A stretch of 40,541 nucleotides of DNA from Sterolibacterium sp. (GTDB taxonomy: Bacteria > Pseudomonadota > Gammaproteobacteria > Burkholderiales > Rhodocyclaceae): the NCBI GenBank assembly GCA_023258955.1, contig JAHFRE010000012.1, positions 1-40,541 of the forward strand, in the 5' to 3' direction. Of this stretch, positions 22,240 to 36,130 are shown piece after piece. A program made the position numbers and the translations under genes. The notes under the pieces are model-generated. The model was given only the letters and a program-made list of their open reading frames with translations. It was not told where the DNA came from and searched no databases. The stretch's first letter is position 1. Every line of letters starts with the position of its first letter.

Positions 22240-22357
22240 CAGCGGATTCTAACCCGCCACTGGCTCAGGGCTTGATCCACATCACGGCGTCGCACCCCAA
22301 GACTCTCCAGAGTTTCCTCTGCGTCAAGGCTTGTTATTCCATTTGGATCAGGGCAGG

Positions 22358-22759
22358 ATGCACGAATGCAAATCCATCTGCAGGTTGGTTAGAGCTATGC
22401 ACCGAATCCGCCACCCCGAAGAACGGGAAACACTGGTTGACCATTTGATCGGTGCACTACTCGCAGCGATGGCGATGCTTCTCACGGTCGCCCTCCGGCC
22501 CGTCTTTGCATTTCTAAAGACGGGTGGCGTTGCCGATTTCTGGGCGATCTACCTGAGCTACGGGCCGGTGCCTATTTGGGGTGCATTGCTAGTTGGCGCA
22601 GCATTCACAATCGCCCTGGTCGTTGGTCCAGGGCGAATGGAAGAACTCTACGGCCACCTTTGGGGAACCGAGGAACCACAGCGCCCCGCTGTAACCTTCG
22701 GGTTGTGGCTTGGCGTTGCTATGGTAATAGCACTAGGCTTCGCCCTCAGCCAAATATGA
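22358..22759 (+). CDS. Small membrane protein, unknown
   Basis: 133 residues from ATG 22358, which follows CAGGGCAGG; a second in-frame ATG at 22397 is possible. Three hydrophobic helices are visible: LIGALLAAMAMLLTVAL, IWGALLVGAAFTIALVV and FGLWLGVAMVIALGFAL. No catalytic or binding motif was recognised. The stop overlaps the next start (ATGA), so two small membrane proteins are made together. It lies at the outer edge of the AT-richer accessory island, on the strand opposite to the large secreted-protein genes. Confidence 0.65.
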   Translation: MHECKSICRLVRAMHRIRHPEERETLVDHLIGALLAAMAMLLTVALRPVFAFLKTGGVADFWAIYLSYGPVPIWGALLVGAAFTIALVVGPGRMEELYGHLWGTEEPQRPAVTFGLWLGVAMVIALGFALSQI

Positions 22760-23227: not shown

Positions 23228-23521
23228 TTACCACTTGCCAAGGCTAAGAATTCCAATTGCTAATCCGTATGATACACCCATGAAGCTAAGATTGTCTTTC
23301 AGAGTTAGCATCCTTGACCATAGATATTTGTTCTCCAAATATTGGAGGCCGACACAAGGGAGTGTGACCGCAAAGAAGATAACGTAATACGTAAACGCGG
23401 AATATAGGGTTACAACATCGCCTGCTAGTGGGGCGCCAAGATAACGAGTTAGAGAATAGCCGATAAGCATCATCACTCCCGCCAATGGCAGATGCTTTCC
23501 GTTGATTATGTCGATGCCCAT
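23228..23521 (-). CDS. Small hydrophobic membrane protein, unknown
   Basis: 97 residues from ATG 23521 (MGIDIINGKHLPLAGVMMLI), with three hydrophobic helices. Base composition is AT-richer than the flanking housekeeping genes. It follows the 75-residue gene on the same strand after 18 bp, so the two probably form a short operon. The Shine-Dalgarno is weak (GAGAAA). No homology was recognised. Size and setting fit the small membrane-protein genes scattered through this island. Confidence 0.5.
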   Translation of the reverse strand: MGIDIINGKHLPLAGVMMLIGYSLTRYLGAPLAGDVVTLYSAFTYYVIFFAVTLPCVGLQYLENKYLWSRMLTLKDNLSFMGVSYGLAIGILSLGKW

Positions 23522-23539: not shown

Positions 23540-23767
23540 CTACGTATTCAACTGCCAAAGACATACTATGATCACTATGGGAATGCTTATGATAAGTAAG
23601 AAAAAGCCAATTCCGGAGAATTTGCAAGCGCATTCTTCACAAAGCTGCTTCCCTCCAGGGTAAGCAAAAAGGAGGAGCAATATGGGAATTAGCCATTTCG
23701 GAATATATCCTCTCCGGCTTCTTGTTTTGCCACAATGTGAGCAGACAAAGCTAATTTCATCGGTCAT
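23540..23767 (-). CDS. Small zinc-ribbon membrane protein, unknown
   Basis: 75 residues. An N-terminal CxxC (CSHCGK) and a second CxxC (CEEC, residues about 43-46) could bind zinc. Hydrophobic helices WLIPILLLLFAY and IGFFLLIISIPIVIIVCLW place it in the membrane. The start ATG 23767 is 36 bp from the start of a divergent plus-strand gene that also combines a CxxC ribbon with membrane helices. No function is known. Confidence 0.55.
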   Translation of the reverse strand: MTDEISFVCSHCGKTRSRRGYIPKWLIPILLLLFAYPGGKQLCEECACKFSGIGFFLLIISIPIVIIVCLWQLNT

Positions 23768-23803
23768 GTCTGCGTGCCCAATCTGTCGCCGAGGTGGGAA
23801 TCC

Positions 23804-24178
23804 ATGTCGCTTAACTCAATATTAGAGCGCAAGGCGTCGAACGACGTGTCTCTGCTCGCGGCTCAGCGCTGGAAGCTGTGGCTCGCATTTGTGGCAGTCC
23901 TGACCGCGGGCGCGCTCATGTGGTTCGACGCCTGGTTTTCCAGCGCGCTGCGCGTGCAGCGATACGCACCAACGCTCATTGGTACTGGACTTGGGTTGTT
24001 GGCGTTGGTTGCGGCCTGCTGTGCAGTGCGATGCCCAAGGTGCGGCAAACGTCTCGTCTGGTATGCGCTGTCGAAGCCAGCGCACTCGTGGGTCGAGTGG
24101 TTGCTGGCCGAAACCACTTGCCCGAAGTGCGGCTACTCGAGCAGCAAGGCGGAGTCTCGCTCTAGCGCTCGCGAGTGA
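23804..24178 (+). CDS. Membrane protein with C-terminal zinc ribbon, unknown
   Basis: 124 residues from ATG 23804, chosen because GAGGTGGG (23791-23798) gives a good Shine-Dalgarno; a GTG at 23774 is the upstream alternative. Two membrane helices are visible (WLAFVAVLTAGALMWFDAW and LIGTGLGLLALVAACCAV), followed by a zinc-ribbon-like pair CPRCGK ... CPKCGY. It is divergent from another small CxxC membrane protein. A 113-bp spacer without recognisable signals follows. Confidence 0.6.
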   Translation: MSLNSILERKASNDVSLLAAQRWKLWLAFVAVLTAGALMWFDAWFSSALRVQRYAPTLIGTGLGLLALVAACCAVRCPRCGKRLVWYALSKPAHSWVEWLLAETTCPKCGYSSSKAESRSSARE

Positions 24179-24291: not shown

Positions 24292-24576
24292 TCACCCCTT
24301 GAATTCGATATAGACATGAAGTGCCAGCGCAACTAAGCTGTAAAGGGCTAGGCAGATCACGAGCATAATCCAAACAGACGGCGGACAATCAAAAAATAGA
24401 CAAAGCGTTTGCTCATAGGCGCGCGCTGGAACAATGAGATCTGCAATCAATACGATCCCAAAAGCAAGCTCACCGGCGAGAAGCCAAACGAATGCAGGAC
24501 GCCTATTCTGCAGCGCGATCATTCTGGCGCGTAATGGTGCGCCAAGTGTTTGCCTTAGGCCCAATGGTAATTTCAT
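24292..24576 (-). CDS. Small membrane protein, unknown (immunity-like position)
   Basis: 94 residues. The N-terminus is basic (MKLPLGLRQTLGAPLRARMI). Two hydrophobic helices follow (AFVWLLAGELAFGIVLIADLIV and VWIMLVICLALYSLVALALHVYI). It begins 23 bp downstream of a broken copy of the transglutaminase-like gene on the same strand. This is where an immunity gene would sit if that broken copy were a displaced toxin tail. That reading is inference; no family was recognised. Confidence 0.55.
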   Translation of the reverse strand: MKLPLGLRQTLGAPLRARMIALQNRRPAFVWLLAGELAFGIVLIADLIVPARAYEQTLCLFFDCPPSVWIMLVICLALYSLVALALHVYIEFKG

Positions 24577-24599: not shown

Positions 24600-24935
24600 T
24601 TAGCTCACACAGTGTGGCGTTGCAGTTTGATGTGCTTGGCTTTTCTGGACCAGGTATTGTGAGAAATTTCGGCGCCTAGGGCCTTGTGTGCTCCCGTGAA
24701 TCCCGCGCAAGCTGAGCGAAGCGGCTGGGCGAGGCCTTTCCGAGAGCCAGCTTAGAACCGCACCGTAAAGGAGATCCCCCGTGAGGCAATCCTTATCCCC
24801 ACCGGAATTGTAAAGATTGATCAAATACTGTATTTGCCCCATCTGTGGGCCCCGTTTTTCCGTTATCACCGTGCCATCCAAACGCAGTTGCGCCTTTTGC
24901 CGAAGCTTGAAGTGATAGTCTTGAGGAATCGTCAA
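24600..24935 (-). pseudogene. Broken partial copy of the transglutaminase-like gene
   Basis: The 111-residue frame contains AQLRLDGTVITEKRG and GDKDCLTGDLLYGAVLS. These match AELRLDGKLVATGG and GDKDDLTGDLLYSAVLS of the 1027-residue protein at 26039-29122. About 60 residues between the two blocks are missing, and one extra base (in the CCACCGGAATTG stretch) shifts the frame. The nucleotide block 24751-24820 is about 93% identical to 27063-27131. The tail after AVLSWLSE has no counterpart in the intact gene. It is a remnant of a duplicated or recombined copy and probably not a functional protein. Confidence 0.75.
24751..24820 (-). repeat. Repeat copy A of transglutaminase-like gene segment
   Basis: 70 bp matching 27063-27131 with four substitutions and one extra base. 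It lies inside the pseudogene. Confidence 0.85.
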
Positions 24936-24958: not shown

Positions 24959-25447
24959 CTAATGCAACGCCTTGGCGGCGAAAGGCATGATCAACACCAA
25001 CAGGACATATCCATCCAATCGCAACAAATCATGTCGATCCTTCGGGGGATATTGTGGAAACATATTCTGAATATCCGCGTCTCTCAACGGGATCAACTCG
25101 GGAATCACTCTTAGTAGCTCTCTGCCCCGAAAAATAAAAAATATGATCAATGCCAACACGAGGCTTCTTAGCGGTAAATCAGGCATGGCAAACAAATGAT
25201 AAATAGTTGGCAGCGCCATGGACAAGACTCCAAATAGGCAAATGCGAAACAAAGAAACGGGTTTTCTATTGACCATCTCCACAAATTTGACATGGTAGGC
25301 AAATGAAAACAGTGCGCCGAAGGCTACTGCGGTTAGGATTAACGCCATGGCTAGCGTGCTTATGAGTAAGGAATCTTGATCAGTAATTACAAGATATCTT
25401 GTGAATACCGCCATGTATCCAACAATTAGCGCGAGGAGTGATTTCAT
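24959..25447 (-). CDS. Four-helix membrane protein, unknown
   Basis: 162 residues from ATG 25447, which shares one base with the preceding stop (TAATG). Four hydrophobic helices are visible, including MKSLLALIVGYMAVFTRYLV, LLISTLAMALILTAVAFGAL and LRSLVLALIIFFIF. The C-terminal stretch ending in YVLLVLIMPFAAKALH is hydrophobic too. No motif was recognised. It is coupled to the 66-residue gene, which in turn is coupled to a remnant of the giant gene, so the three form one displaced cassette. A role as immunity protein is conceivable but unproven. Confidence 0.6.
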   Translation of the reverse strand: MKSLLALIVGYMAVFTRYLVITDQDSLLISTLAMALILTAVAFGALFSFAYHVKFVEMVNRKPVSLFRICLFGVLSMALPTIYHLFAMPDLPLRSLVLALIIFFIFRGRELLRVIPELIPLRDADIQNMFPQYPPKDRHDLLRLDGYVLLVLIMPFAAKALH

Positions 25448-25647
25448 TATGCAAGCAGGCCAGTGACGACAAAGCAAAATAGTATTCCAAACCACCGAAC
25501 CAATTCGGGCAGCATACCTCCGCCTAGTTGGGTCAACCCTAATAGATCGCCAGCTGCTTGGGCAGCGTTGGCTCGATTAAACTCATCGTCGTCGTTGGCA
25601 GCCTTCATTCCTTTATCCCCACGGTATATGTTTATGCGTTCCCACAT
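25447..25647 (-). CDS. Small protein with C-terminal membrane helix, unknown
   Basis: 66 residues from ATG 25647, which overlaps by one base the stop of the giant-gene remnant (TAATG). Its own stop overlaps the next ATG in the same way. The N-terminal half is polar (ANDDDEFNRANAAQ). The C-terminus (LVRWFGILFCFVVTGLLA) is a membrane helix. It could be a small effector, a linker remnant or a partner of the 162-residue membrane protein. No homology was recognised. Confidence 0.5.
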   Translation of the reverse strand: MWERINIYRGDKGMKAANDDDEFNRANAAQAAGDLLGLTQLGGGMLPELVRWFGILFCFVVTGLLA

Positions 25648-25763
25648 TAGTAGCGCAGGCGGCCTTCGCGCAGCAGTTGCTGTTTGACGTCGAGTTTGAC
25701 CGGGGGCCCGGGGACGGTGAAGCTATCGGAACCGATGACTTCCTTATGATGCCCATGGAGCAT
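25647..25763 (-). pseudogene. C-terminal remnant of a second giant CARDB-type gene with a different tail
   Basis: A 38-codon open frame ends GSDSFTVPGPPVKLDVKQQL-LREGRLRY-stop. It matches residues about 1428-1453 of the intact giant protein (GSDSFTVTGPPVKLDVKQQL-LREGRLL). Identity stops exactly at REGRL: the intact gene continues for about 440 residues, whereas this copy ends after two more residues. The block 25655-25733 matches 30524-30602 at 76 of 79 positions. It shows that another allele or paralogue with a very short tail existed here. Confidence 0.75.
25655..25733 (-). repeat. Repeat copy A of giant-gene segment
   Basis: 79 bp identical to 30524-30602 except at three positions. The homology ends sharply at codons for REGRL. 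Confidence 0.9.
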
Positions 25764-26049
25764 AATGAACAAGGTAACCGACTGATACTCCCATAGTGAC
25801 AGGAAATATTGTTGAAAAGCCGTCTTGCTCCATAAGACGCCATATCACCCGCTTTTCAATAACGAAGAATATGAACATCAGCGGTAGCGTCAGTATCGCC
25901 TGAACTGGCAACATGCTGAGTAGGTCTGATTGATGCTTTACCCAGGACGAGAACGCATCCGTGGCAACAAATGCCACCAGTGCCGAAACAAGAAACACGA
26001 CAACATAGACAATCTTTACAAAAAAAGACTCCTGCTGTTTATGCCGCAT
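25744..26049 (-). CDS. Small membrane protein overlapping the transglutaminase-like gene (candidate immunity protein)
   Basis: 101 residues from ATG 26049. It overlaps the 3' end of the large upstream gene by 11 bp on the same strand, so the two are translationally coupled. Hydrophobic helices are visible: IVYVVVFLVSALVAFVATDAF, MLPVQAILTLPLMFIFFVI and a weaker one near VTMGVSVGYLVHY. A small membrane protein directly behind a secreted protein with a hydrophobic C-terminal tip is the arrangement of immunity to pore-forming toxins. This is inference from position and topology. The gene ends 10 bp before the giant-gene repeat block. Confidence 0.65.
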   Translation of the reverse strand: MRHKQQESFFVKIVYVVVFLVSALVAFVATDAFSSWVKHQSDLLSMLPVQAILTLPLMFIFFVIEKRVIWRLMEQDGFSTIFPVTMGVSVGYLVHYAPWAS

Positions 26050-29000
26050 AGAGACCGCCGTATCTGAGTCGCCTAAATAACGCTATCGTGCCCACCATCC
26101 AATTAACTAACAGATCAATCAATATGGATGCCAGCACAACCAGAATCATTGCTGCGATAACAGCAACCGCAGGAGAGGCAAAGAATGGCCCTACAGACGC
26201 CCCGATTATGAGGCCAGCAACTGCTGATGCTGCTGCGCCAACGATTTTGGCGATCTTTTGTGGGGCATTCATGCTACTGTCGGAAACTGTCTTTTCAATA
26301 TCAATAATGAGCAACGCCACTGCCAATGTCGCGGCAGCCATTCGTCCAAACTCCGCAAATGTCTTCTCAAAATACGATCCAAACATCGAACCAGGATCTC
26401 GGTAATGTGCTAGTAAGGCATCTAACATTGCGCCGAACGCTGCACCAATCGTATTCCACGGCAGGCCAGCTCCATTGAAGCCCCCCGCAATCTTATACGC
26501 CCCTGATCCTGTTGCCGGGTCGCTAATGATGTAGCAACTGCCCGTCCAGCCACTTTGGGTGATGGGGGCTTGATGTACGGTCACCTCATTGCCTACAGCC
26601 AAGGCGTTCTGGATTTCTTCCATGGCCTGTGGATCAATAGTGATCTGCGCCAGCAACGCCTGATGCTGTGCCTGGTTCGCCTGGTTAAGTGTGTAAATCT
26701 TCTGCCCCTGCCCTGCCGCCAGTGCCAGCGCTTTCACTGCCGAGATGCCCTGCGTGCGATTAGAGTCTGCAGGGCTGGTAAAGAGTTGCTCAGGAATTAT
26801 GTGTTCATTCGCCGAGTAAGTCATTCCGACTTGTTTGTTATAGGCGATGACAGTGGTCGGGCTGTTGTCCTTGGCTACGTTTATAGAGGCGTAGCGTTGG
26901 ATGTCCATCACCAAGCCGCGGAAGGCAACGCTATGGGGAATGCCGAACCAATACAAGGGTTGCGCATCCGCAAAGAAGTTACCAAAGGATGGCTTGCGGT
27001 ATTCGACAACACCTGCAGCTCTTGAAGAAATATTAGAGGTTATGAAATTGGCAGCGAAATAACTTAGAACAGCACTGTAAAGGAGATCCCCCGTGAGGTC
27101 ATCCTTATCCCCACGGAATTGTAAAGATTGAAGGCTGGTTTGGGTTTGCGTCATCTTTGTCTGTATTGACACCAACTGACTCGGGCTTACTCCCTGCAAG
27201 TCGACATGGGTAGCAATGTATTCACCTGCGGTCGGGTGGGTGTCTTCTGCATAGTCCCAACCAGCAGCGGGGTCAAACAGGCCCTCGCTGCTGGTGAGTT
27301 CTTCTCCCATGGTGAAGGTGCCACCCGTGGCAACAAGCTTACCATCCAGCCTGAGTTCAGCAGTTAGGTGGATGAGGTAGCCCGGCAAGCTAGTTGGAAA
27401 TTCATTCGGCGAAATAGGTGTTCCATCCGCGTGCGGCAAAGGCAAGTAACTATTAAGAACCGACATGTCCGCGGGTGAAGCCGGAGCGAATGAGAGGGTG
27501 ATTTTTTTGCCGGCCAAGCTTGGAAGGCTTTGTCTGAGGCTGACCACCGGTGTGCCCATGGCGCGATCTAGGGCGCTGGCATACAGATTGTAATCAAACT
27601 GGTGTCGTACCTGATCCGGCAGTGCGGTGAACTTGCTACCTGTTGCAATGGTGGTGTACGGCAAGGTGCCCAAGAGGAGGCTGTAGTTCTGCGGTATGAT
27701 GGTTTTGCTCCCAATCACGTCACCGACGGTGACATTGGTTCTTTGGGAGTTTATGTAGGTCTGGACTTGGGTTTGGTAGCTGGCGAGTGCGGATTGGATG
27801 GCTGCGCCGTTCATGTTCTGTACCCAGCCGGAGGCGTCAAGGGTAGCACCACTTTGGGCTTGGGTGACGAGTGCTTGGGCGTCAAGCGGCACAGCGGATC
27901 TGACGTCCACTCCTTGTGTATAGATGTACTGCTTGAAGCTCGCATCCATCGGCACCCAGGTATTTGGGGTCTTGTTGACCGCACCTCGGCTAGGCGTGTA
28001 ATCGACGTAGGCCTGCACCCAGACGTGCTCCATGCGGATGGTCTTGATGATGCCGCCTGATGTGATCCCGCTGTTCGGTATGCCGCCTTGGCCGAGCAGG
28101 CTTTGCGCCGCTTCCGCTTTGGTGACACCGCCCACCCAGTTCATCACTTTGTCGGCCGGGACGTCGATCGTGCCGTACACGTACCTGGCCGGAATGCCTG
28201 CCGCTCGATAGAGGGCAATCAGCAGGGACGCCGTGTCAAACGCGTTGCCGCGTTTGTTTTGCAGCGTCATGTCGCTGCCCTGGATGCTGCCATAGCTGGG
28301 GATGAAGGCGATGTTGTTCCTCACCCAGTTATAGATTTGGACCGGGTTGTTGTTCAGTTTTGCGGCCTGATCCTTGATGGCCTGGGTGATCTGCACGTCT
28401 TCGGTCGCGGCCAGGTCGTCCGCAGTCGGCAATGCGGGCAAGGTGGCGGTGGCGGGCATGGTGAATCCGTTGGGGATCGCACCAGCGAGTCGCACAGGCT
28501 CTTGCCTGAACAGGCTGGTTTTGAATCCTTGCGCGGTCTCGATCGGCGCTCTCACCTTGCTGGTCGGTGTGCCGAAGGGGAGCTTGTTGGGATTGGTCTT
28601 GTTGTGGGGCTTGCCTTTCTGGTTTTGCTCGAGCCATGCGGCGAGATTGTTGATGCCGGCGGCACGACCGACTTCGTCGTCCTTGTTGTCGGCGTCTTCC
28701 AGGACTTTGAGTTGTTGCTTGAACTCTGCTTGCTTGGCCTTGTAGGCTTGTACCGCGGCGCGGTGGCGGGCGAGGATCTCGGCGGGGAGGTTTTTGGCGA
28801 TCAGGTCGGCTTCGGTGGCGGCAAAGGCGTCGTCCACCTTGGCTTCCAAGGCGATAAGCTGGGCCTTCTGGGAGCGCAGGGTCTTGCTGTCGTCGCGGGT
28901 GCTTTGCTGCTTGGCGGCCTTGTCGGCGCCGCGTTTGGCGGTCTCCTTCATGGCGTCGAGCAGTTTGGCGTAGAGCTCGTCGTTGCCCCCGGCGGTCGGT

Positions 29001-29122
29001 TGTGTCGCCTGGACTTCGGCGAGTTTTGCCTGGGCCACCGCCTGCAACGGTTGCAAGGTGAGGCTGGTGAAGGTGATGAGCACGAGGATGCTGACCCGGC
29101 GCATGAAGGACGTGGTTTGCAT
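26039..29122 (-). CDS. Secreted transglutaminase-fold protein lacking the catalytic Cys, with hydrophobic C-terminal tip
   Basis: 1027 residues from ATG 29122, chosen because MQTTSFMRRVSILVLITFTS...AVAQA is a clean Sec signal; ATGs at 29146 and 29200 are alternatives, the last only 3 bp after the giant gene's stop. Residues about 35-170 are Lys/Ala-rich and helical. Residues 260-395 have the transglutaminase core pattern (VQIYNWVRNNIAFIPSYG, LLIALYRAAGIPARYVYGT, EHVWVQAYV, WVPMDAS). The His (H366) and Asp (D393) are kept, but the Cys position is Ala (A294 in RGNAFDTA). After GSGAYKIAGG (872-881) comes a tip of about 146 residues with several hydrophobic helices. Tip plus overlapping small membrane gene suggest a toxin/immunity arrangement. 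Function is unproven. Confidence 0.85.
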   Translation of the reverse strand: MQTTSFMRRVSILVLITFTSLTLQPLQAVAQAKLAEVQATQPTAGGNDELYAKLLDAMKETAKRGADKAAKQQSTRDDSKTLRSQKAQLIALEAKVDDAFAATEADLIAKNLPAEILARHRAAVQAYKAKQAEFKQQLKVLEDADNKDDEVGRAAGINNLAAWLEQNQKGKPHNKTNPNKLPFGTPTSKVRAPIETAQGFKTSLFRQEPVRLAGAIPNGFTMPATATLPALPTADDLAATEDVQITQAIKDQAAKLNNNPVQIYNWVRNNIAFIPSYGSIQGSDMTLQNKRGNAFDTASLLIALYRAAGIPARYVYGTIDVPADKVMNWVGGVTKAEAAQSLLGQGGIPNSGITSGGIIKTIRMEHVWVQAYVDYTPSRGAVNKTPNTWVPMDASFKQYIYTQGVDVRSAVPLDAQALVTQAQSGATLDASGWVQNMNGAAIQSALASYQTQVQTYINSQRTNVTVGDVIGSKTIIPQNYSLLLGTLPYTTIATGSKFTALPDQVRHQFDYNLYASALDRAMGTPVVSLRQSLPSLAGKKITLSFAPASPADMSVLNSYLPLPHADGTPISPNEFPTSLPGYLIHLTAELRLDGKLVATGGTFTMGEELTSSEGLFDPAAGWDYAEDTHPTAGEYIATHVDLQGVSPSQLVSIQTKMTQTQTSLQSLQFRGDKDDLTGDLLYSAVLSYFAANFITSNISSRAAGVVEYRKPSFGNFFADAQPLYWFGIPHSVAFRGLVMDIQRYASINVAKDNSPTTVIAYNKQVGMTYSANEHIIPEQLFTSPADSNRTQGISAVKALALAAGQGQKIYTLNQANQAQHQALLAQITIDPQAMEEIQNALAVGNEVTVHQAPITQSGWTGSCYIISDPATGSGAYKIAGGFNGAGLPWNTIGAAFGAMLDALLAHYRDPGSMFGSYFEKTFAEFGRMAAATLAVALLIIDIEKTVSDSSMNAPQKIAKIVGAAASAVAGLIIGASVGPFFASPAVAVIAAMILVVLASILIDLLVNWMVGTIALFRRLRYGGLYAA
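27063..27131 (-). repeat. Repeat copy B, inside the intact transglutaminase-like gene
   Basis: 69 bp encoding FRGDKDDLTGDLLYSAVLS, matching 24751-24820. Confidence 0.85.
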
Positions 29123-29203
29123 GGTGTGGTCCCCGGTCTTGTCCATGTCGTTCCCGGCGCCGTCCGCCGGGCAATGTCTAAGCAAGTGTTTGGCTGCCAT
29201 AGC

Positions 29204-32200
29204 TCAATGCTTGCCGCTCGGTGGCGCGTATAGCCATTCCAGTTCCAGCTCCTGCATCCAACGGTCGATCGCGAGGCGATAGACGCCCACGTCCTTGCCG
29301 GTTATGTCCCTCAGTTTGTCGATGGCGTCGAGGAGGCTTGCGAGCGCGTCTTCATATTGCCCCTGGGCAGTCTTGCTGATGGCGTCCTGCAAGTTCTTGA
29401 CGGCTTGGTCGCGCCCATTGCGGTCGGGGCTGCTGGACAATGGCAGCGCGTTGAGGTCGGCGATGAGCAAGTTGGTGACGACAAGGTCCGCGGCGGCGGC
29501 GACCTTGATCGTCAGTGGGTAGCTGCCGTAGAGTTTGCTCTGGCCGTTGCTGATGCTGTTCACCACGGTGGTGAGCGTGTAGTTGGCGCTCGTCTCGGGT
29601 ACGCGCAGCGCCGCTGTAAGGTCGATGCTTTGGCCGACGGCGAGGTTGGGCGTCCACTCGGCCTGACTGCTCGTGGGATTCACGCTGGCCTGGGGCGTGG
29701 TGGAGACCACGAAGGCGCCGAGCGGCGGGAGGTCGGTGACATCCAGCGCGACCGCCTGGCCCTGGTTGGTGAGTGTTGTTCGCGCGACAGCATAGGCGCC
29801 GGCGGTGAAGGCGTCGGGCGTCTGGGGCGTGAGGTAGCTGAACGTCGTGTGCAGGATGTCCTGCCAAACGGCGGGAATGGGCTGGGTTTGCATCAGAATG
29901 TCGAGGAGGTCGAAGGCCATGACCATGCCGCGTCCATTGCCGTAGGTGTTGCTGACGATGGCGGCGCTGGTTCCGTTCCTGCAGCCGTGGCATTTGACGT
30001 AGGTGGCTTGTTGCGTGCCGCCGTCCAAAGCGAGTACGAGCGGTCGGGCACCGGTGGGGGCGATCAAGCCGGGAACAAAGAGCGCTCCGGTGAAGGTGAT
30101 GGGCAGGTTGCTGGTTGCGAGGTTGCCGCGATAGAGGACGCCTGGCACCTCATCGAGGAGCCCGTTGCGTTCGTCGTGGATGCCGTCGAGCAGCAGGCTG
30201 TCGCCGCGATTGACGGCTTCGCGCAGTTCCCGTGTCAGGTCGTTGTCGAGCTTCAAGGCGCCGCCGGAGAGCCAGTAGCTGTTGTACTTGCCGCTGCGGA
30301 AGGCGAGTTTGAAGTCGGCGAGTGTAGCGCTGATCCAGTGGTCGATGCCGAACGCGCTCAGGGTGCGGTCGAGGAATTGGGCGCGGCTGTTGATGCAGTT
30401 CTTGTCGTCATCGCTATCGCTTTGCCAGTTGCCATTCGCGCTGGTGGTTTGGGCGCTGGCGCCACCGGACTGCGTATTGTTCTGGCCGTTGCCTTCACCG
30501 TTCTTGCAGCTCAACAGCACCAGCAGACGGCCTTCGCGCAGCAGCTGCTGTTTGACGTCGAGTTTGACCGGGGGCCCGGTGACGGTGAAGCTATCGGAAC
30601 CTAAGGTCAGCGTCTTGCCGCCGATCTGAGCGGTCAGCACCGCCATGTATGTGGTATTCACCTTGCCGCTACCGGACATCCAGGTCTGCACACTCTGGTA
30701 GGTGGCACCCTTGGCCAGGCTAACGGTGGCGGGCCAGCTCGTCACGACCGCCTGGGTGGCCGGGTCGATCACGCTTAGTGTTATTGGCAGACCCGTGGTC
30801 GCTGCATTGCCGAGGTTGTTCACGGTACTGGCGATGAGCAGCGGGTCGCCCTGGGAAACCTGCTTGGTAGCGGCGCTGACGCTACCGGTGAGCCCACTGC
30901 CGCTGTCGGCGCTAGACTGGACAGTGAAAGCGGTCTCGCTCTGAGCAAGTACGGTTCCGCCAGCGTCTTTGACAGAGAGCACGGCCCGGTAACTGCCGGC
31001 AGCCGCCATGGCGAGGGCCACGCCGTTGCTCAGATCCTTGAAACCAGCGGGCGGCAGTTGCGTCAGGGTGGTCGTTTGCGTCCACAGCACGCTGCCATTC
31101 GGACTGTAGACCTGGGTGACGACGCTGAGACCATTGAACGTCTGGTTGAGGCTGAGGTTGCTGATCCGGTCGAGAAGCTTGACAGTGTCGCTGGGCGGAT
31201 AGCTTTGTTTGTCGGTGGTGATCTTGGCGCCGACCAAGGCCGAAGCGATTGGGCCGACGATATTGAACGAAGCCCGCGCTTCCCCGACCTTTCGGCTTTG
31301 CACGTCGAACATCGTGCCCACCACCGTGTAGGTGCCCACAGCGTAGCTGCCGGTGTTCCAGGTAGCGCTCAGGGATCGCTGGGTAGCGGGGGCAAGCGCC
31401 GTGAAGCTTTGCGGCCCCAGGTCCTGGACGAGGATTCCGTCAGCCGCGTAGATCGCCAGATCGACCGCACCGGAGCTTGCCGCGGCGCCCGTATTGGTCA
31501 CGAGAGCGTTGAGATTGACAGACGCGTTGGCACCGTATTGCGGCTTGTCTGAAGACAGCTTGAGGTCCAGGTAGGGTGATGCCGTCACCGTGGGGATTTC
31601 GATGGACAGGTTGACGTCTTGCTTCCCCGGATCCACCACGTGGCAGCTCTTCGTATCGTTATAGAACAGCTGCCCGACAGGACACTTGAATATCTGGCCA
31701 ACGTACATGATCTGCGTGCAGTTGGAAACAACGGTGTAGGTGCTTTCCGTTACGCTGACCAGCGTTTCCGGATTGTGGCAGACGCCAGTGCAGGTGGGAC
31801 CGGTCACCAGGTTGTTTGCCGCGACGCTTGCGATGGCGACGCTAAGCGGTGTATCCCCAGAAACTGCCGGAATCAAACATTGTGGTAGCGGGCCGCCCGC
31901 AGCGCTTGTTGGTACGTAATAGTTGTGGCCGCTCGTGAAGGCGTTATTGAATGTCAGGTGCGCGTCGGTCGCCAGGCTACGGACTTCGTTCGGTAGCAGG
32001 TTCAGCACGGTCAAATCAAAGCTGATTTCCTGTCCAGCGCCAAGAACTGCGGCGAGGTGCCAGACGGCCGTGGTCGTGCCATCGGCATTCCGGGTCGAAT
32101 TGCTTGGTACCAAATTCGGGTTGGCCATGGTGACGTTGGCCGGGAAGGTCACGCTCAAGTCGGTAGCGATGCCGCCCAAGCGATCCTGACCCGTGACCTT

Positions 32201-34882
32201 GACGGTGCCGCGCACTGTTTGCGTCCCCGTCGGCACCACCGGGCGGTCCACGCTGTAGGTCGCACTGGCGGCATCTCCGACGTACAACGTGCCCTCGATC
32301 TTGCCCAGCGTCGTGTCCGTGCCAGCCAATTGCAGGTTGAAGTTCCCTGCCTGGACGGGCGTCCAGTCCGGGATTGTCAAGGTTTTGACGTCATTGACCA
32401 GCAACTTGGCAACGGCGACATTCTGAGTTAGCACGATGCTGCCATCTTTGCTGTTCAAGATCTTCAATGTGAGCGTCTGCGCCGCCAGATCCAAATTGCC
32501 ATCGTTGTGAATCAAGGCGTGCAATTTGACGGGCGTATTGGTCCCGGCCGGCAAGGCGGACGGATTGGCGGTGATCGTGCCGGTGAAGTGGGACTGCGAA
32601 CTGACCGTGACCGAACTTGCGCGCTCGGCCAAGACGTTTCCTTGCGACAACGTTTGGGTCATGCTGTTCGGCTCGACCAGGCGAACGGTCAACGAATACA
32701 CACCCGGGAGGAACTGCGCAGAGTTCCACACCAGCTTGACACCCAAGTGCTGGCCCGGTGCGATCACCGGTATGCCAAGCAGAATGCCATTGGCGTCGTA
32801 GGCAATTCCGCTGCTGATCACGTTGCGATTGCTATCGGAGACCAGCAACTCAACGATCGCGGTACTGGCACCCAATCCCGTGTTGCTGATCGTGGTCGCC
32901 ACCGTGACGTTGGCGCTGCTGCCGACGCTGCCCGGCGTGACGACCAAGTCCGCGAGCGACAGGGAACCGCCATTTTGCGGGGTCAAGGCAAAGTTCTGCA
33001 CCAGCCGAGATGGCGCGGGGATTTGCAGGTTGATGGTTTGAGAGTTGAAGCCGGTCGCACTGGCACGCAACGATATCGAGCTATCGGCGATGTTATCGAT
33101 GGTGTAGCTGCCATCGAAGGAGGTCGCGACGTAGGGGAGCCCGATCACCTGCACCCACGCCCCGGCGATGCCACGACCGGAGGCATCGACGACGCGGCCA
33201 CTGATGCTGGTACTGGTCAAAATCGGCGACAGGAATACGTTGCCGACGTTGAGCGTCGTGCCCGCTGCCACCACAAACGTTTGGCTCACGCTGCCATAAC
33301 CCGTCAACGAGAAGCTTGCGCTATAGCTGCCCGGGCTCAGGGTCACGTCGAACTGGCCGTTGGCGGTGGTCACCGCGGCAGCGTTGCTTGTCCCTGCGAT
33401 GTGGACTGCGACGCCCGCCAGGGGAAGGGCTTGCCCTGCGGAAACCACCGTCCCCACGTAGTGGGCCGTGGTCGGCGCCGTCTGTCCATTGGCGTATAGG
33501 GTTGGGGAAAAGACCTGGGTTTGCCCAGCGGTGACGGTGCCGCTGCCCGATAAGGTTTGATATCCGGTCACACTGGCGGCGATCACCATCGCACCCGGGT
33601 TGACGCCACTGAATTCATAACGACCGTTCGCATCCGTGGTCGTGCTTGCCGTCATTGCTCCCGTCACCGATATCGTCACCCCTGGCAAGGGCGTGTTGCC
33701 GGTCGCCGACGTCACTTGGCCGCGGATGATCCCCGCGGTGGCCGTCTGCGTCAGGCTGATGGTGCCGGCGTCCGTTGTTTGCCCGGCAGTGATCGTATAG
33801 TTTGCGCTTGCCGTGCTGTACCCATTGCGTGTGTAACCGGCTGAGTAGCTTCCGGCGGTCAGGCCGGCGATGGTGAAGCTTCCTGCAGGGTCCGTCACCG
33901 CTGCCTGATTACCTTGCCCAGACAAGGCGACGCTGACGTTGGATAACGGCGCATTGGTCACAGCGTCTTTCACTTGGCCTTTCAGGATGCCGGTCGTCGC
34001 TGGTGGAGCGGACTGGGTGGACAAGGCGCGCAGTGCCAACGCAGTCAAAAAGGGGTCCTCATTCCAACTGCCGTCAGCGAGCTGGCGCGAAAGCAGGAAG
34101 GCTCGTGCGTTGCTGAGCACGGTTGCGTCACCCGTCATCGGGGCAATGGCGGAGAGTACGAACGCCGTCGTGTACGCCCCGCTCTCCCAGCTGCCGTTCG
34201 CCCCTTGCAGTTGCAACAACCACGCGCTCAGGTTTTTGACGATGTTTGCGTTCGCCAGATCGGGCTGGCTCGTCTGCAAGGCGAGCAAGGCCAGGGCGCT
34301 GACCTCGATCCGTTCGGACTCGCTCGACCCGTCCACGCCACCATCGGCGAGGATGGCGCTGGCAAGGTAGGACCGCATACCCAGCGCAGGACCGGTGTCG
34401 CCTTGGCCGCTCAGCACCAGAGCAAACAATACCCAAGCCGTATCGAGCGGATTGCTGGCGCTTCCCGCATCGCCGCCGAAACCGCCGTCGGCATTCTGGC
34501 GAGCCAGGAGCGCGACCACGCCGCCGTCGATCGTTTGTCCGGCTAGGCTTGAAGAGATCAGTTGGCGCGCCAGATATTCGCTGTTGTCGTCGGTGTTCGC
34601 CGCAATGGAACCGGCGAGAGTGGTCGGGATGGTGCCCAGCAGTTTGAATGTTGTCAGCGCTTCGGCTCGGGCTTGCAGCGGCGTGGCGATGGACGCTGAC
34701 TCGCCGGCCAGGCCGCCATCCGCCCGCACCTGGGCTTGCAGCCAGTCCATGCCCTTCTGCAGTTCCGGGGAAAGCGCGGCCCTGGCTGGCGCGCTGGTAC
34801 ACAGAAGAAGCATGAGGCATAATCCCAATACTTCCCGCCATGCGCCACGCAAGCACTTCACAGCTTTCGGATTCGAGCGCAT
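29204..34882 (-). CDS. Giant secreted mosaic protein: alpha/alpha-toroid, carboxypeptidase-regulatory-like and CARDB-like repeats, GATase-like tail
   Basis: 1892 residues. A Sec signal is cleaved near ARA35. Residues 38-290 resemble the prenyltransferase/squalene-cyclase alpha/alpha-toroid (repeated GGxxG...W: NADGGFGG, GANGSWESG, LADGSWNED). Residues about 298-634 hold four carboxypeptidase-regulatory-like repeats (GxVxDAxxxxPLxxVxVxxxG...GxYxxxxLxxG). From 640 come CARDB-like beta repeats, with a Cys-rich insert at 1031-1080. Residues 1454-1690 look like a class I glutamine-amidotransferase-type fold (LLVLLSCKNG; YWLSGGALKL; LLLDGIHDERNGLLDEV) with CHGC at 1631-1634. A helical end closes it. 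The Shine-Dalgarno AGGAGGGG lies 8 nt before ATG. It is the first gene before the transglutaminase-like gene. The domain calls are from pattern; the role, probably cell-surface or secreted, is unknown. Confidence 0.88.
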   Translation of the reverse strand: MRSNPKAVKCLRGAWREVLGLCLMLLLCTSAPARAALSPELQKGMDWLQAQVRADGGLAGESASIATPLQARAEALTTFKLLGTIPTTLAGSIAANTDDNSEYLARQLISSSLAGQTIDGGVVALLARQNADGGFGGDAGSASNPLDTAWVLFALVLSGQGDTGPALGMRSYLASAILADGGVDGSSESERIEVSALALLALQTSQPDLANANIVKNLSAWLLQLQGANGSWESGAYTTAFVLSAIAPMTGDATVLSNARAFLLSRQLADGSWNEDPFLTALALRALSTQSAPPATTGILKGQVKDAVTNAPLSNVSVALSGQGNQAAVTDPAGSFTIAGLTAGSYSAGYTRNGYSTASANYTITAGQTTDAGTISLTQTATAGIIRGQVTSATGNTPLPGVTISVTGAMTASTTTDANGRYEFSGVNPGAMVIAASVTGYQTLSGSGTVTAGQTQVFSPTLYANGQTAPTTAHYVGTVVSAGQALPLAGVAVHIAGTSNAAAVTTANGQFDVTLSPGSYSASFSLTGYGSVSQTFVVAAGTTLNVGNVFLSPILTSTSISGRVVDASGRGIAGAWVQVIGLPYVATSFDGSYTIDNIADSSISLRASATGFNSQTINLQIPAPSRLVQNFALTPQNGGSLSLADLVVTPGSVGSSANVTVATTISNTGLGASTAIVELLVSDSNRNVISSGIAYDANGILLGIPVIAPGQHLGVKLVWNSAQFLPGVYSLTVRLVEPNSMTQTLSQGNVLAERASSVTVSSQSHFTGTITANPSALPAGTNTPVKLHALIHNDGNLDLAAQTLTLKILNSKDGSIVLTQNVAVAKLLVNDVKTLTIPDWTPVQAGNFNLQLAGTDTTLGKIEGTLYVGDAASATYSVDRPVVPTGTQTVRGTVKVTGQDRLGGIATDLSVTFPANVTMANPNLVPSNSTRNADGTTTAVWHLAAVLGAGQEISFDLTVLNLLPNEVRSLATDAHLTFNNAFTSGHNYYVPTSAAGGPLPQCLIPAVSGDTPLSVAIASVAANNLVTGPTCTGVCHNPETLVSVTESTYTVVSNCTQIMYVGQIFKCPVGQLFYNDTKSCHVVDPGKQDVNLSIEIPTVTASPYLDLKLSSDKPQYGANASVNLNALVTNTGAAASSGAVDLAIYAADGILVQDLGPQSFTALAPATQRSLSATWNTGSYAVGTYTVVGTMFDVQSRKVGEARASFNIVGPIASALVGAKITTDKQSYPPSDTVKLLDRISNLSLNQTFNGLSVVTQVYSPNGSVLWTQTTTLTQLPPAGFKDLSNGVALAMAAAGSYRAVLSVKDAGGTVLAQSETAFTVQSSADSGSGLTGSVSAATKQVSQGDPLLIASTVNNLGNAATTGLPITLSVIDPATQAVVTSWPATVSLAKGATYQSVQTWMSGSGKVNTTYMAVLTAQIGGKTLTLGSDSFTVTGPPVKLDVKQQLLREGRLLVLLSCKNGEGNGQNNTQSGGASAQTTSANGNWQSDSDDDKNCINSRAQFLDRTLSAFGIDHWISATLADFKLAFRSGKYNSYWLSGGALKLDNDLTRELREAVNRGDSLLLDGIHDERNGLLDEVPGVLYRGNLATSNLPITFTGALFVPGLIAPTGARPLVLALDGGTQQATYVKCHGCRNGTSAAIVSNTYGNGRGMVMAFDLLDILMQTQPIPAVWQDILHTTFSYLTPQTPDAFTAGAYAVARTTLTNQGQAVALDVTDLPPLGAFVVSTTPQASVNPTSSQAEWTPNLAVGQSIDLTAALRVPETSANYTLTTVVNSISNGQSKLYGSYPLTIKVAAAADLVVTNLLIADLNALPLSSSPDRNGRDQAVKNLQDAISKTAQGQYEDALASLLDAIDKLRDITGKDVGVYRLAIDRWMQELELEWLYAPPSGKH
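30524..30602 (-). repeat. Repeat copy B, inside the intact giant gene
   Basis: 79 bp matching 25655-25733 at 76 positions. It marks the point (REGRL, about residue 1453) after which tails differ. Confidence 0.9.
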
Positions 34883-35471: not shown

Positions 35472-35711
35472 ATGAGCCGCCTGACCATCACCTTGTCGGA
35501 AGCGCGCTACCGGGCGCTCAAGGAAGCGTCCGCCCAGCGCGACAAGACCATCGGCCAACTGATCGACGAGAGCCTGGACTTCTACGGCATCAAGTCGCGG
35601 CAAGACGCGCGCGATCTGGTGCGCCGCGCCCGAGCGCACAGCAAGCTCGGTGAGGAACAAGCGCTCGCCGTCGCTCAAACGGAGACCAAGGCGGTGCGCC
35701 GCAAGACGTGA
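35472..35711 (+). CDS. Ribbon-helix-helix antitoxin
   Basis: 79 residues from ATG 35472; the upstream ATG 35454 lies inside the operator palindrome and was rejected. The N-terminus MSRLTITLSEARYRALKEAS with GQLIDESLDFYGI is a ribbon-helix-helix DNA-binding domain (Arc/CopG type). The remaining 40 residues, rich in Arg and Ala, would bind and neutralise the toxin. Its stop overlaps the toxin start (GTGA), the usual coupling that makes antitoxin first. Autoregulation through the palindrome at 35436-35455 is likely. Confidence 0.88.
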   Translation: MSRLTITLSEARYRALKEASAQRDKTIGQLIDESLDFYGIKSRQDARDLVRRARAHSKLGEEQALAVAQTETKAVRRKT

Positions 35712-36130
35712 GTCGCACCGTCGTCATCGTCGACACCAACGTCGTCGTGGCTGGACTGCTGACCGCGAACGAGCAATCGCCTGTCGCGCGCATCCTGGAT
35801 GGCATGCTCGGCGCAGCCTTCCCTTTTGTTCTATCCGAGGCCCTGCTGGCGGAGTACCGTCGTGTGCTGGTCCGGCCGGGCGTGCGCAAGCTGCATCGGC
35901 TGACGGTCGCCGAGGTTGAGACCATTCTGACGGACCTCGCCCAGCACGCGATCGTGCTGGCACCAGCGACCGCGCCACCCGCGCCCGATCCAGGTGACCA
36001 GCTGTTATGGGAATTGCTCGCTGCGCGGGCGAACCTGGTCCTGGTTACGGGCGACAAACGTCTGCTCAGGGATACTGTCATGCAAGGACGCGTGAATTCG
36101 GCCCAGGCCTTTGTCAGCGGCGCTCGCTAG
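35708..36130 (+). CDS. PIN-domain ribonuclease toxin
   Basis: 140 residues from GTG 35708, overlapping the antitoxin stop by 4 bp. PIN-domain acidic residues are in place: VDTNVVVAGLL near the N-terminus, SEALLAEYRRVL (Glu) in the middle, and DPGDQLLWELLAAR...LVTGDKRLL near the C-terminus. The pattern matches the COG1569-type PIN toxins that cleave RNA and are held inactive by an RHH antitoxin. The right copy of the 13-bp repeat begins at the stop codon, and a converging symporter gene ends 13 bp beyond. Confidence 0.9.
   Translation: MSRTVVIVDTNVVVAGLLTANEQSPVARILDGMLGAAFPFVLSEALLAEYRRVLVRPGVRKLHRLTVAEVETILTDLAQHAIVLAPATAPPAPDPGDQLLWELLAARANLVLVTGDKRLLRDTVMQGRVNSAQAFVSGAR

What the first reader, a model, noticed from the sequence alone, without database searches (positions are those of the whole stretch)
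24600..24935. Frameshifted, internally deleted copy of the transglutaminase-like gene
Two blocks (AQLRLDG... and GDKDCLTGDLLYGAVLS) match the intact gene but lack about 60 intervening residues. A single-base insertion sits in the repeat. The tail beyond AVLS is unrelated to the intact gene. Together with the giant-gene remnant it shows that this locus has been rebuilt more than once.
Basis: seen in the sequence. Interest (0 to 1): 0.5.

Follow-up and report, generated by a model that had tools for sequence, protein, structure and literature searches.

The report
Scar in a bacterial toxin-immunity array
The broken gene copy is a leftover of an older toxin gene in a locus where bacteria appear to swap the business end of a secreted antibacterial toxin and keep a row of small membrane genes, probably antidotes, behind it; the scar is ordinary decay, but the toxin family is a little-described variant.

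Summary
The fragment is real. A 70-bp block (24751-24820) is 93% identical to the intact gene (65/70, one gap), a second short block (24825-24911) matches the same protein family, about 55-60 residues are missing between them, and the tail is unrelated. Two corrections: block 1 resembles another branch of the family (Undibacterium hunanense) best, so the piece looks mosaic; and both blocks share one open frame. The "transglutaminase-like gene" looks like a polymorphic toxin: in 32 family sequences the C-terminus after a conserved motif is no more alike than shuffled letters (15.1% against 14.9%; the region before it 35.2%), some tips match toxin-type domains, and the transglutaminase cysteine is missing in 59 of 59 rows. 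Downstream lies a second scar, beside the end of another toxin tip (Z 14.5). Same-strand pieces of their own operon lie downstream in 7 of 33 related loci (short scars in 4, long second copies in 3), opposite-strand pieces in 0 of 33. Best reading: a decayed, displaced toxin module in an immunity array of an RHS-less transglutaminase polymorphic-toxin island. Toxicity and immunity are inferred, not tested.

The parts
29204..34882 (-). giant partner gene, 1892 aa (carboxypeptidase-regulatory-like repeats, CARDB; below-cutoff TED and squalene-cyclase-like matches in the N-part)
   Evidence: Pfam, NCBIfam; matches in 26 of the 44 loci, many of which have cut flanks
26039..29200 (-). intact polymorphic-toxin-like gene, 1053 aa: transglutaminase core (272-420) without its cysteine, conserved pre-tip domain to about 906, variable tip about 911-1053 with 4 hydrophobic segments
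   Evidence: Pfam PF01841; tip boundary; Cys; model confident to about 906, then low
25744..26049 (-). candidate immunity gene 1 (101 aa, 2 TM by hydropathy), overlaps the toxin ORF by 11 bases
   Evidence: function inferred from position and type
25655..25733 (-). scar 1: 79-bp piece of the giant gene (residues about 1427-1453), 76 of 79 identical
25447..25647 (-). remnant (C-terminal end) of a different toxin tip
   Evidence: matches the tip of C-terminal-only module L014/L018 (tblastn 1e-7; Z 14.5, 0 of 1000 shuffles)
24959..25447 (-). candidate immunity gene 2 (162 aa from ATG, 4 TM by hydropathy); ATG overlaps the stop of the tip remnant by one base
   Evidence: no homologue outside the own genome in 300 genomes; similarity to the L014 neighbour not significant (Z 0.9)
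24825..24911 (-). the finding, block 1: piece of the pre-tip region of a divergent allele
24751..24820 (-). the finding, block 2 (scar 2): 70-bp piece of the toxin gene (residues about 690-712), 93% identical, one single-base gap
24600..24750 (-). the finding, unrelated tail of the 111-codon frame; origin unknown
   Evidence: one distant DNA match L022; no plasmid match; no Rfam match
24292..24576 (-). candidate immunity gene 3 (94 aa, 2 TM by hydropathy) behind the scar
   Evidence: one weak match outside the own genome in 300 genomes
23540..23767 (-). small ORF, 75 aa, two CxxC plus a hydrophobic segment; possible immunity-type gene
23228..23521 (-). small ORF, 97 aa, one hydrophobic segment; possible immunity-type gene
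23774..24178 (+). opposite-strand ORF, 134 aa, two CxxC plus 2 hydrophobic segments
22324..22372 (-). 49-bp stretch resembling the end of an insertion sequence, at the island's left end

Best explanation
24600-24935 is a decayed scar of a displaced toxin module. The intact neighbour is an RHS-less polymorphic toxin: N-terminal export region, transglutaminase domain without its catalytic cysteine, conserved pre-tip domain, exchangeable C-terminal tip, then a small immunity-type gene. When a new tip (or a longer stretch of the operon) recombines in, the older copy is pushed downstream. Its toxic part is then pruned by deletions while the small membrane gene behind it, probably its antidote, stays. 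The window shows two such pruned copies: giant-gene scar + tip end + 24959-25447, and the mosaic toxin-gene scar (this finding) + 24292-24576. Shown here: homology of the blocks, the tip remnant, tip replacement in the family, toxin-type domains in some relatives' tips, absence of the catalytic Cys, same-strand operon pieces in relatives, a short or empty interval at this site in two same-genus genomes. Inferred: that the tip is toxic to other bacteria (probably membrane-acting), that the small membrane ORFs are immunity proteins, and the order of recombination and deletion.
For: Blocks. Tip replacement: over the same 32 sequences, mean pair identity is 35.2% before the boundary and 15.1% after it, against 14.9% for shuffled tips; the two copies in U. 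flavidum (L033) are 70% alike before and 25% after. Tips are alike between distant hosts in a few cases. Toxin-type domains among 42 tips: NLPC_P60 in 2; NucA/NucB, GIY-YIG and DUF6310 in 1 each. No Cys at the site in 59 of 59 rows, His 53 of 53, Asp 52 of 52. C-terminal-only or 5'-truncated modules with other tips: L014/L018, L032, L033. Operon pieces downstream on the same strand in 7 of 33 loci, opposite strand 0 of 33; of the seven, L032, L033, L038 and L069 hold short scars, L044, L048 and L054 long second copies. L033 repeats the window's layout. The ORF after tips with 2 or more TM has at least 1 TM in 21 of 30. GC 47-54% from 23 to 28 kb against 60-76% in the other 1-kb blocks. Matches to symporter and rmuC are about 50 bp apart in G119 and about 680 bp in G006, against 13.9 kb between the genes here.
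Against: No toxin domain is recognised in the window's own tip and none of the window's small ORFs scanned matches a known immunity family. The cognate link for 24959-25447 is not supported by sequence (Z 0.9). The fragment's tail has no known source. 29 of 33 related loci show no short scar downstream and 26 of 33 no piece at all, though several have short flanks. Membrane-type next ORFs also follow tips with 0-1 TM (5 of 6), so a match of tip type and neighbour type is not shown. TM counts rest on a simple hydropathy rule, and 'next ORF' was the longest candidate near the tip's end.
Confidence: 0.78

Rival explanations
1. Plain duplication and decay: a piece of the gene was copied and broke down, with no toxin-exchange system behind it.
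For: The piece itself is only two short blocks, and 26 of 33 related loci show no downstream piece.
Against: Scars come from both genes of one operon, on the same strand, beside a remnant of a different tip, and similar ones occur in other hosts. The family has replaced C-termini, some with toxin-type domains.
Confidence: 0.1
2. Silent recombination handle: the short near-identical block is kept because it lets stored modules recombine back into the active gene.
For: Both blocks are short (70 and 79 bp) and 93-96% identical while their surroundings differ; orphan cdiA-CT and mafB-CT cassettes keep shared sequence (passages of PMC4927057 and PMC4287609).
Against: No intact tip follows the scar, so recombining there would give no toxin; scar positions in the parent genes differ from locus to locus.
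Confidence: 0.08
3. A real 111-residue protein is made and used.
For: The frame is open for 111 codons.
Against: No conserved full-length counterpart in 300 genomes, own included; the model places three strands and a helix in the stretch that the fragment lacks; TTG start; mosaic tail.
Confidence: 0.02
4. Assembly artefact that joins unrelated pieces.
For: The genome is in 389 contigs.
Against: The copies differ from the intact genes by 4-7%, unlike a collapsed repeat, and comparable scars exist in a named isolate, Undibacterium flavidum LX15W.
Confidence: 0.02

Closest known systems
Polymorphic toxins with inactive transglutaminase domains (Zhang et al. 2012, PMC3482391; that section read in full)
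   Same: Transglutaminase domain that has lost a catalytic residue, in front of variable C-terminal toxin domains.
   Different: The paper says these domains are always followed by RHS repeats; the window gene has no RHS match and carries a conserved pre-tip domain and a short hydrophobic tip. An RHS protein that starts with the same pre-tip region lies next to one relative (L037 second copy).
Orphan cdiA-CT/cdiI and rhs-CT modules (PMC4927057, passages; PMC3967940, search listing only)
   Same: Displaced 3' ends of the toxin gene with immunity genes lie downstream in the same orientation, described as a possible fossil record.
   Different: No CdiA or RHS scaffold in the window gene; the window's displaced copies are pruned to scars.
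MafB/MafI islands with mafB-CT cassettes (PMC4287609, passages)
   Same: Toxin with alternative C-terminal cassettes, some without start codons, each followed by small immunity ORFs, almost half without known domains.
   Different: A sequence link to MafB was not tested; the described N-terminal domain (DUF1020) was not found in the window gene by Pfam.
Polyimmunity loci (PMC3482391, passages)
   Same: Rows of small immunity-type genes.
   Different: The paper says such loci are never interrupted by toxin genes or cassettes; here scars of toxin genes lie between the small ORFs.

Membership tests
Polymorphic toxin system | Same body, wholly different C-terminal domains | tested here: met
   (32 sequences: 35.2% before, 15.1% after the boundary, 14.9% for shuffled tips)
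Polymorphic toxin system | C-terminal domains of toxin type | tested here: met
   Met for a few relatives only (NLPC_P60 in 2 of 42; NucA/NucB, GIY-YIG, DUF6310 in 1 each); the window's own tip has no match
Polymorphic toxin system | Cognate immunity gene right after the tip | tested here: inconclusive
   Small ORF adjacent and often membrane-type, no known immunity family among the window ORFs scanned, no functional test
Polymorphic toxin system | Standalone or displaced C-terminal cassettes downstream | tested here: met
   L014/L018, L032, L033; in the window only remnants
Polymorphic toxin system | Export signal and delivery to other cells | not testable with these tools
   Hydrophobic N-terminus seen in the sequence; no secretion test
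Inactive-transglutaminase polymorphic toxins (Zhang 2012) | Catalytic triad residue lost | tested here: met
   No Cys in 59 of 59 rows with a letter at the site; the site was assigned from the recalled G-x-C-x-D motif
Inactive-transglutaminase polymorphic toxins (Zhang 2012) | Followed by RHS repeats | tested here: not met
   No RHS match in the window gene; so a relative or variant, not a member as defined
Inactive-transglutaminase polymorphic toxins (Zhang 2012) | Transglutaminase domain directly after the signal peptide or TM helix | tested here: not met
   The core starts at residue 272; about 200 residues, modelled mostly as helices, lie in front
Complete orphan toxin/immunity module | Shared segment + intact tip + immunity gene | tested here: not met
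   24600-24935 keeps shared segments only; no tip was recognised behind it

The most novel reading that the evidence does not exclude
An RHS-less branch of transglutaminase polymorphic toxins keeps a readable archive of its past: each replaced operon copy is pruned to a short tag of the toxin or giant gene plus its membrane immunity gene, so selection removes the toxin but keeps the antidote, and the row of small genes lists the toxins the lineage once carried.
Probability: 0.4. Interest if true: 0.6.

Novelty: new variant of a known kind. Interest (0 to 1): 0.45.

Why it matters
The scar is a marker. It shows that a gene that looks like a housekeeping transglutaminase is probably an exchangeable antibacterial toxin, and it turns a string of otherwise unmatched small membrane ORFs into candidate immunity genes. 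A like layout in Undibacterium flavidum, and related genes in betaproteobacteria, Nitrospirae and others, suggest a widespread family that Pfam and NCBIfam did not name in the window gene beyond the transglutaminase core. Seven searches of the open library gave one paper that describes transglutaminase domains at the N-terminus of polymorphic toxins, and the section read names only RHS-linked forms. Passages on transglutaminases or polymorphic toxins in four other listed papers describe other things; the remaining listed papers were not opened.

Tried and rejected
Tail of the fragment: searched in 199 family genomes as part of a 3.8-kb query and alone in 300 order genomes, own included. The four hits outside the own genome are matches of 25-40 bp in GC-rich stretches of three different kinds and were set aside as coincidence. 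L022 (76% over 83 columns) stays unexplained. Rfam gave nothing, plasmids nothing.

Immunity kinship: 24959-25450 against the neighbour of the L014 tip, not significant (Z 0.9). Homologues of 24292-24576: one weak match outside the own genome; of 24959-25450: none (300 genomes each, own included). Tip remnant 25450-25647: none outside the own genome in 290 genomes (whether that draw held the genome of L014/L018 is not known). Within the fetched loci it matched L014/L018 at 1e-7; two weaker matches (L045 at 0.004, L055 at 0.02) were not pursued.

Plasmid-borne relatives: none. Viral contigs: two loci, not followed. Fold search against the PDB: no match better than E 0.0014; of 235 matches the 50 shown are mostly transglutaminases, and nothing stood out there for the pre-tip domain or tip. 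Promoter and terminator scan: no more than shuffles. A first motif-based tip finder found 14 tips and was replaced by an alignment-based one (43 rows from 36 loci).

Rows dropped: L056 and L059 carry the same gene as L003 and L002 and were left out and of the counts (site rows); L002 and L003 were left out instead. L014 overlaps L018; both L014 tips were left out and the L014 rows out of the count; L014 and L018 were left out. L041 was left out for a flank under 500 bp. L046 had no next ORF and is not in the 21 of 30. Tips over 400 aa (RHS forms) were left out of the neighbour count and, and cut to the last 220 aa. One search uses 32 of the 35 sequences.

Full report
What is there. The 111-codon frame at 24600-24935 (-) is open and starts with TTG. 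Two of its parts match the protein family of the intact gene 26039-29200 (-). The second part is clear at DNA level: 24751-24820 against 27063-27131, 65 of 70 identical with one single-base gap; in the own genome nothing else matches. The first part is recognised at protein level: a profile of 34 relative sequences plus the window protein finds both parts in order, and the best single match among the fetched loci is the Undibacterium hunanense protein in L037 (score 73, shuffle mean 33, 0 of 300 shuffles reach it). About 55-60 residues between them are gone. The resident gene is the close source of block 2 but not of block 1, so the fragment looks like a mosaic (inference). Beyond block 2 there is no DNA match to the intact gene.

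What the intact gene is. Pfam sees only a transglutaminase core. The canonical cysteine is absent in 59 of 59 aligned rows that have a letter there, while His (53 of 53) and Asp (52 of 52) stay (the cysteine site was assigned from the recalled motif). Relatives came from 297 family genomes (17 with a match, own included) and from one scan of a collection of 84,980 species genomes (44 loci). After the motif GAYKI.GG.NG the sequence changes completely (seen). Over the same 32 sequences the mean pair identity is 35.2% before this boundary and 15.1% after it; shuffled tips give 14.9%. The two copies in one strain, U. flavidum, are 70% alike before and 25% after. The AlphaFold2 model is confident up to about residue 906 and has block means of 29-59 in the tip. 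A few tips carry toxin-type domains: NlpC/P60 in two of 42, NucA/NucB, GIY-YIG and DUF6310 in one each. Many are short and hydrophobic, as in the window. Some tips are alike between distant hosts, for example U. hunanense and Steroidobacter gossypii (47% over about 170 residues) or U. flavidum and an Archangium MAG (31%). The next ORF has at least one hydrophobic segment after 21 of 30 tips with two or more such segments and after 5 of 6 tips with fewer, so membrane-type neighbours are common but not specific to membrane-type tips. Matches to the large partner gene 29204-34882 occur in 26 of the 44 loci. RHS-bearing homologues also occur, such as the second copy in L037.

The array. Downstream of the toxin and its overlapping 101-aa neighbour lie, on the same strand: a 79-bp piece of the giant gene (76 of 79 identical), the end of a different toxin tip (25447-25647) whose stop overlaps the ATG of a 162-aa ORF with four hydrophobic segments, the finding, and a 94-aa ORF with two. 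The tip remnant matches the tip of a C-terminal-only module in an unnamed same-family genome (Z 14.5, 0 of 1000 shuffles). At E <= 1e-6 the two pairs scar/parent gene are the only self-similar pairs in the whole window. GC is 47-54% in the 1-kb blocks from 23 to 28 kb (array, tip and second part of the toxin gene) and 60-76% in the others.

Relatives. In 33 loci with at least 500 bp downstream (154,377 bp in all), 7 carry pieces of the upstream operon on the same strand and none on the opposite strand. Four of the seven (L032, L033, L038, L069) hold short, scar-like pieces; three (L044, L048, L054) hold long second copies. So 29 of 33 show no short scar. U. flavidum (L033) has the intact toxin with its neighbour, a 5'-truncated module with another tip and its neighbour, a 341-bp toxin-gene scar at 96%, a run of small membrane ORFs and a 466-bp giant-gene scar at 90%. 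A Thiobacillus MAG (L032) has a 90-bp tag at 97% directly before a diverged C-terminal module; L038 has a 74-bp giant-gene tag at 92%; L069 a 324-bp toxin-gene tag at 98%. Tag positions in the parent genes differ, which speaks against a fixed recombination site (inference). In L038 and L069 no row of small membrane ORFs follows the tag, so they support the scars but not the immunity array.

Island. In two of four same-genus genomes the matches to the flanking symporter and rmuC lie about 50 bp (G119) and about 680 bp (G006) apart; here 13.9 kb lie between the genes. The other two give no information on the site. Neither the toxin nor the array was found in these four. A 49-bp stretch at 22324-22372 has matches of 74-88% in six same-family genomes, in L026 just before an ORF that looks like a transposase, so an insertion-sequence remnant may mark the left end; the transposase reading is recalled, not scanned.

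Explanation. The known precedents are orphan cdiA-CT/cdiI modules, described as displaced 3' ends and a possible fossil record (passages of PMC4927057), and mafB-CT cassettes (passages of PMC4287609). The window fits a more decayed stage: old copies reduced to a tag, sometimes a tip end, and a small membrane gene. The fragment is such a tag. Toxicity, immunity and the order of events are inferred.

Comparison and novelty. Zhang et al. [quoted passage not shown] The window gene meets the loss of a catalytic residue and fails the other two features, so it is filed as a variant, not a member as defined. Seven searches of the open library gave no paper seen to describe an RHS-less form; of the other listed papers, passages in four were read and the rest were not opened, and subscription journals and preprints are not covered. 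The finding itself is an ordinary scar; the system around it gives the interest.

Noticed in passing
window 22324-22372: Stretch with matches of 74-88% in six same-family genomes; in L026 it lies just upstream of an ORF that looks like a transposase (1566-2189). Possible insertion-sequence end at the island's left border.
   Followed up: partly
window 24627-24708; L022 1501-1582: The fragment's tail matches, at 76%, a stretch between two ORFs that look like helix-turn-helix proteins (recalled, not scanned) in another same-family genome; includes an exact run of 19 bases. Nature unknown.
   Followed up: partly
window 23540-23767 (-), 23774-24178 (+); L032 9912-10367; L059 9926-10297: Small ORFs that combine CxxC pairs (zinc-ribbon-like) with hydrophobic segments occur near these toxin genes; possibly an immunity type.
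   Followed up: no
window 35708-36130 (+): 140-aa ORF at the other end of the island that looks like a PIN-domain protein (recalled, not scanned); possible toxin-antitoxin remnant.
   Followed up: no
L083 4001-6484: An IMG/VR viral contig carries a near-full relative of the toxin (40% identity, residues 81-910).
   Followed up: no
L037 11112-17204: Undibacterium hunanense has next to the RHS-less toxin an RHS-repeat protein that starts with the same pre-tip region (residues 699-910), a possible link between the two forms.
   Followed up: partly
window 29204-34882: The giant partner has below-cutoff matches to a complement-type TED domain and squalene cyclases at its N-terminus; role in export or display unknown.
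   Followed up: no
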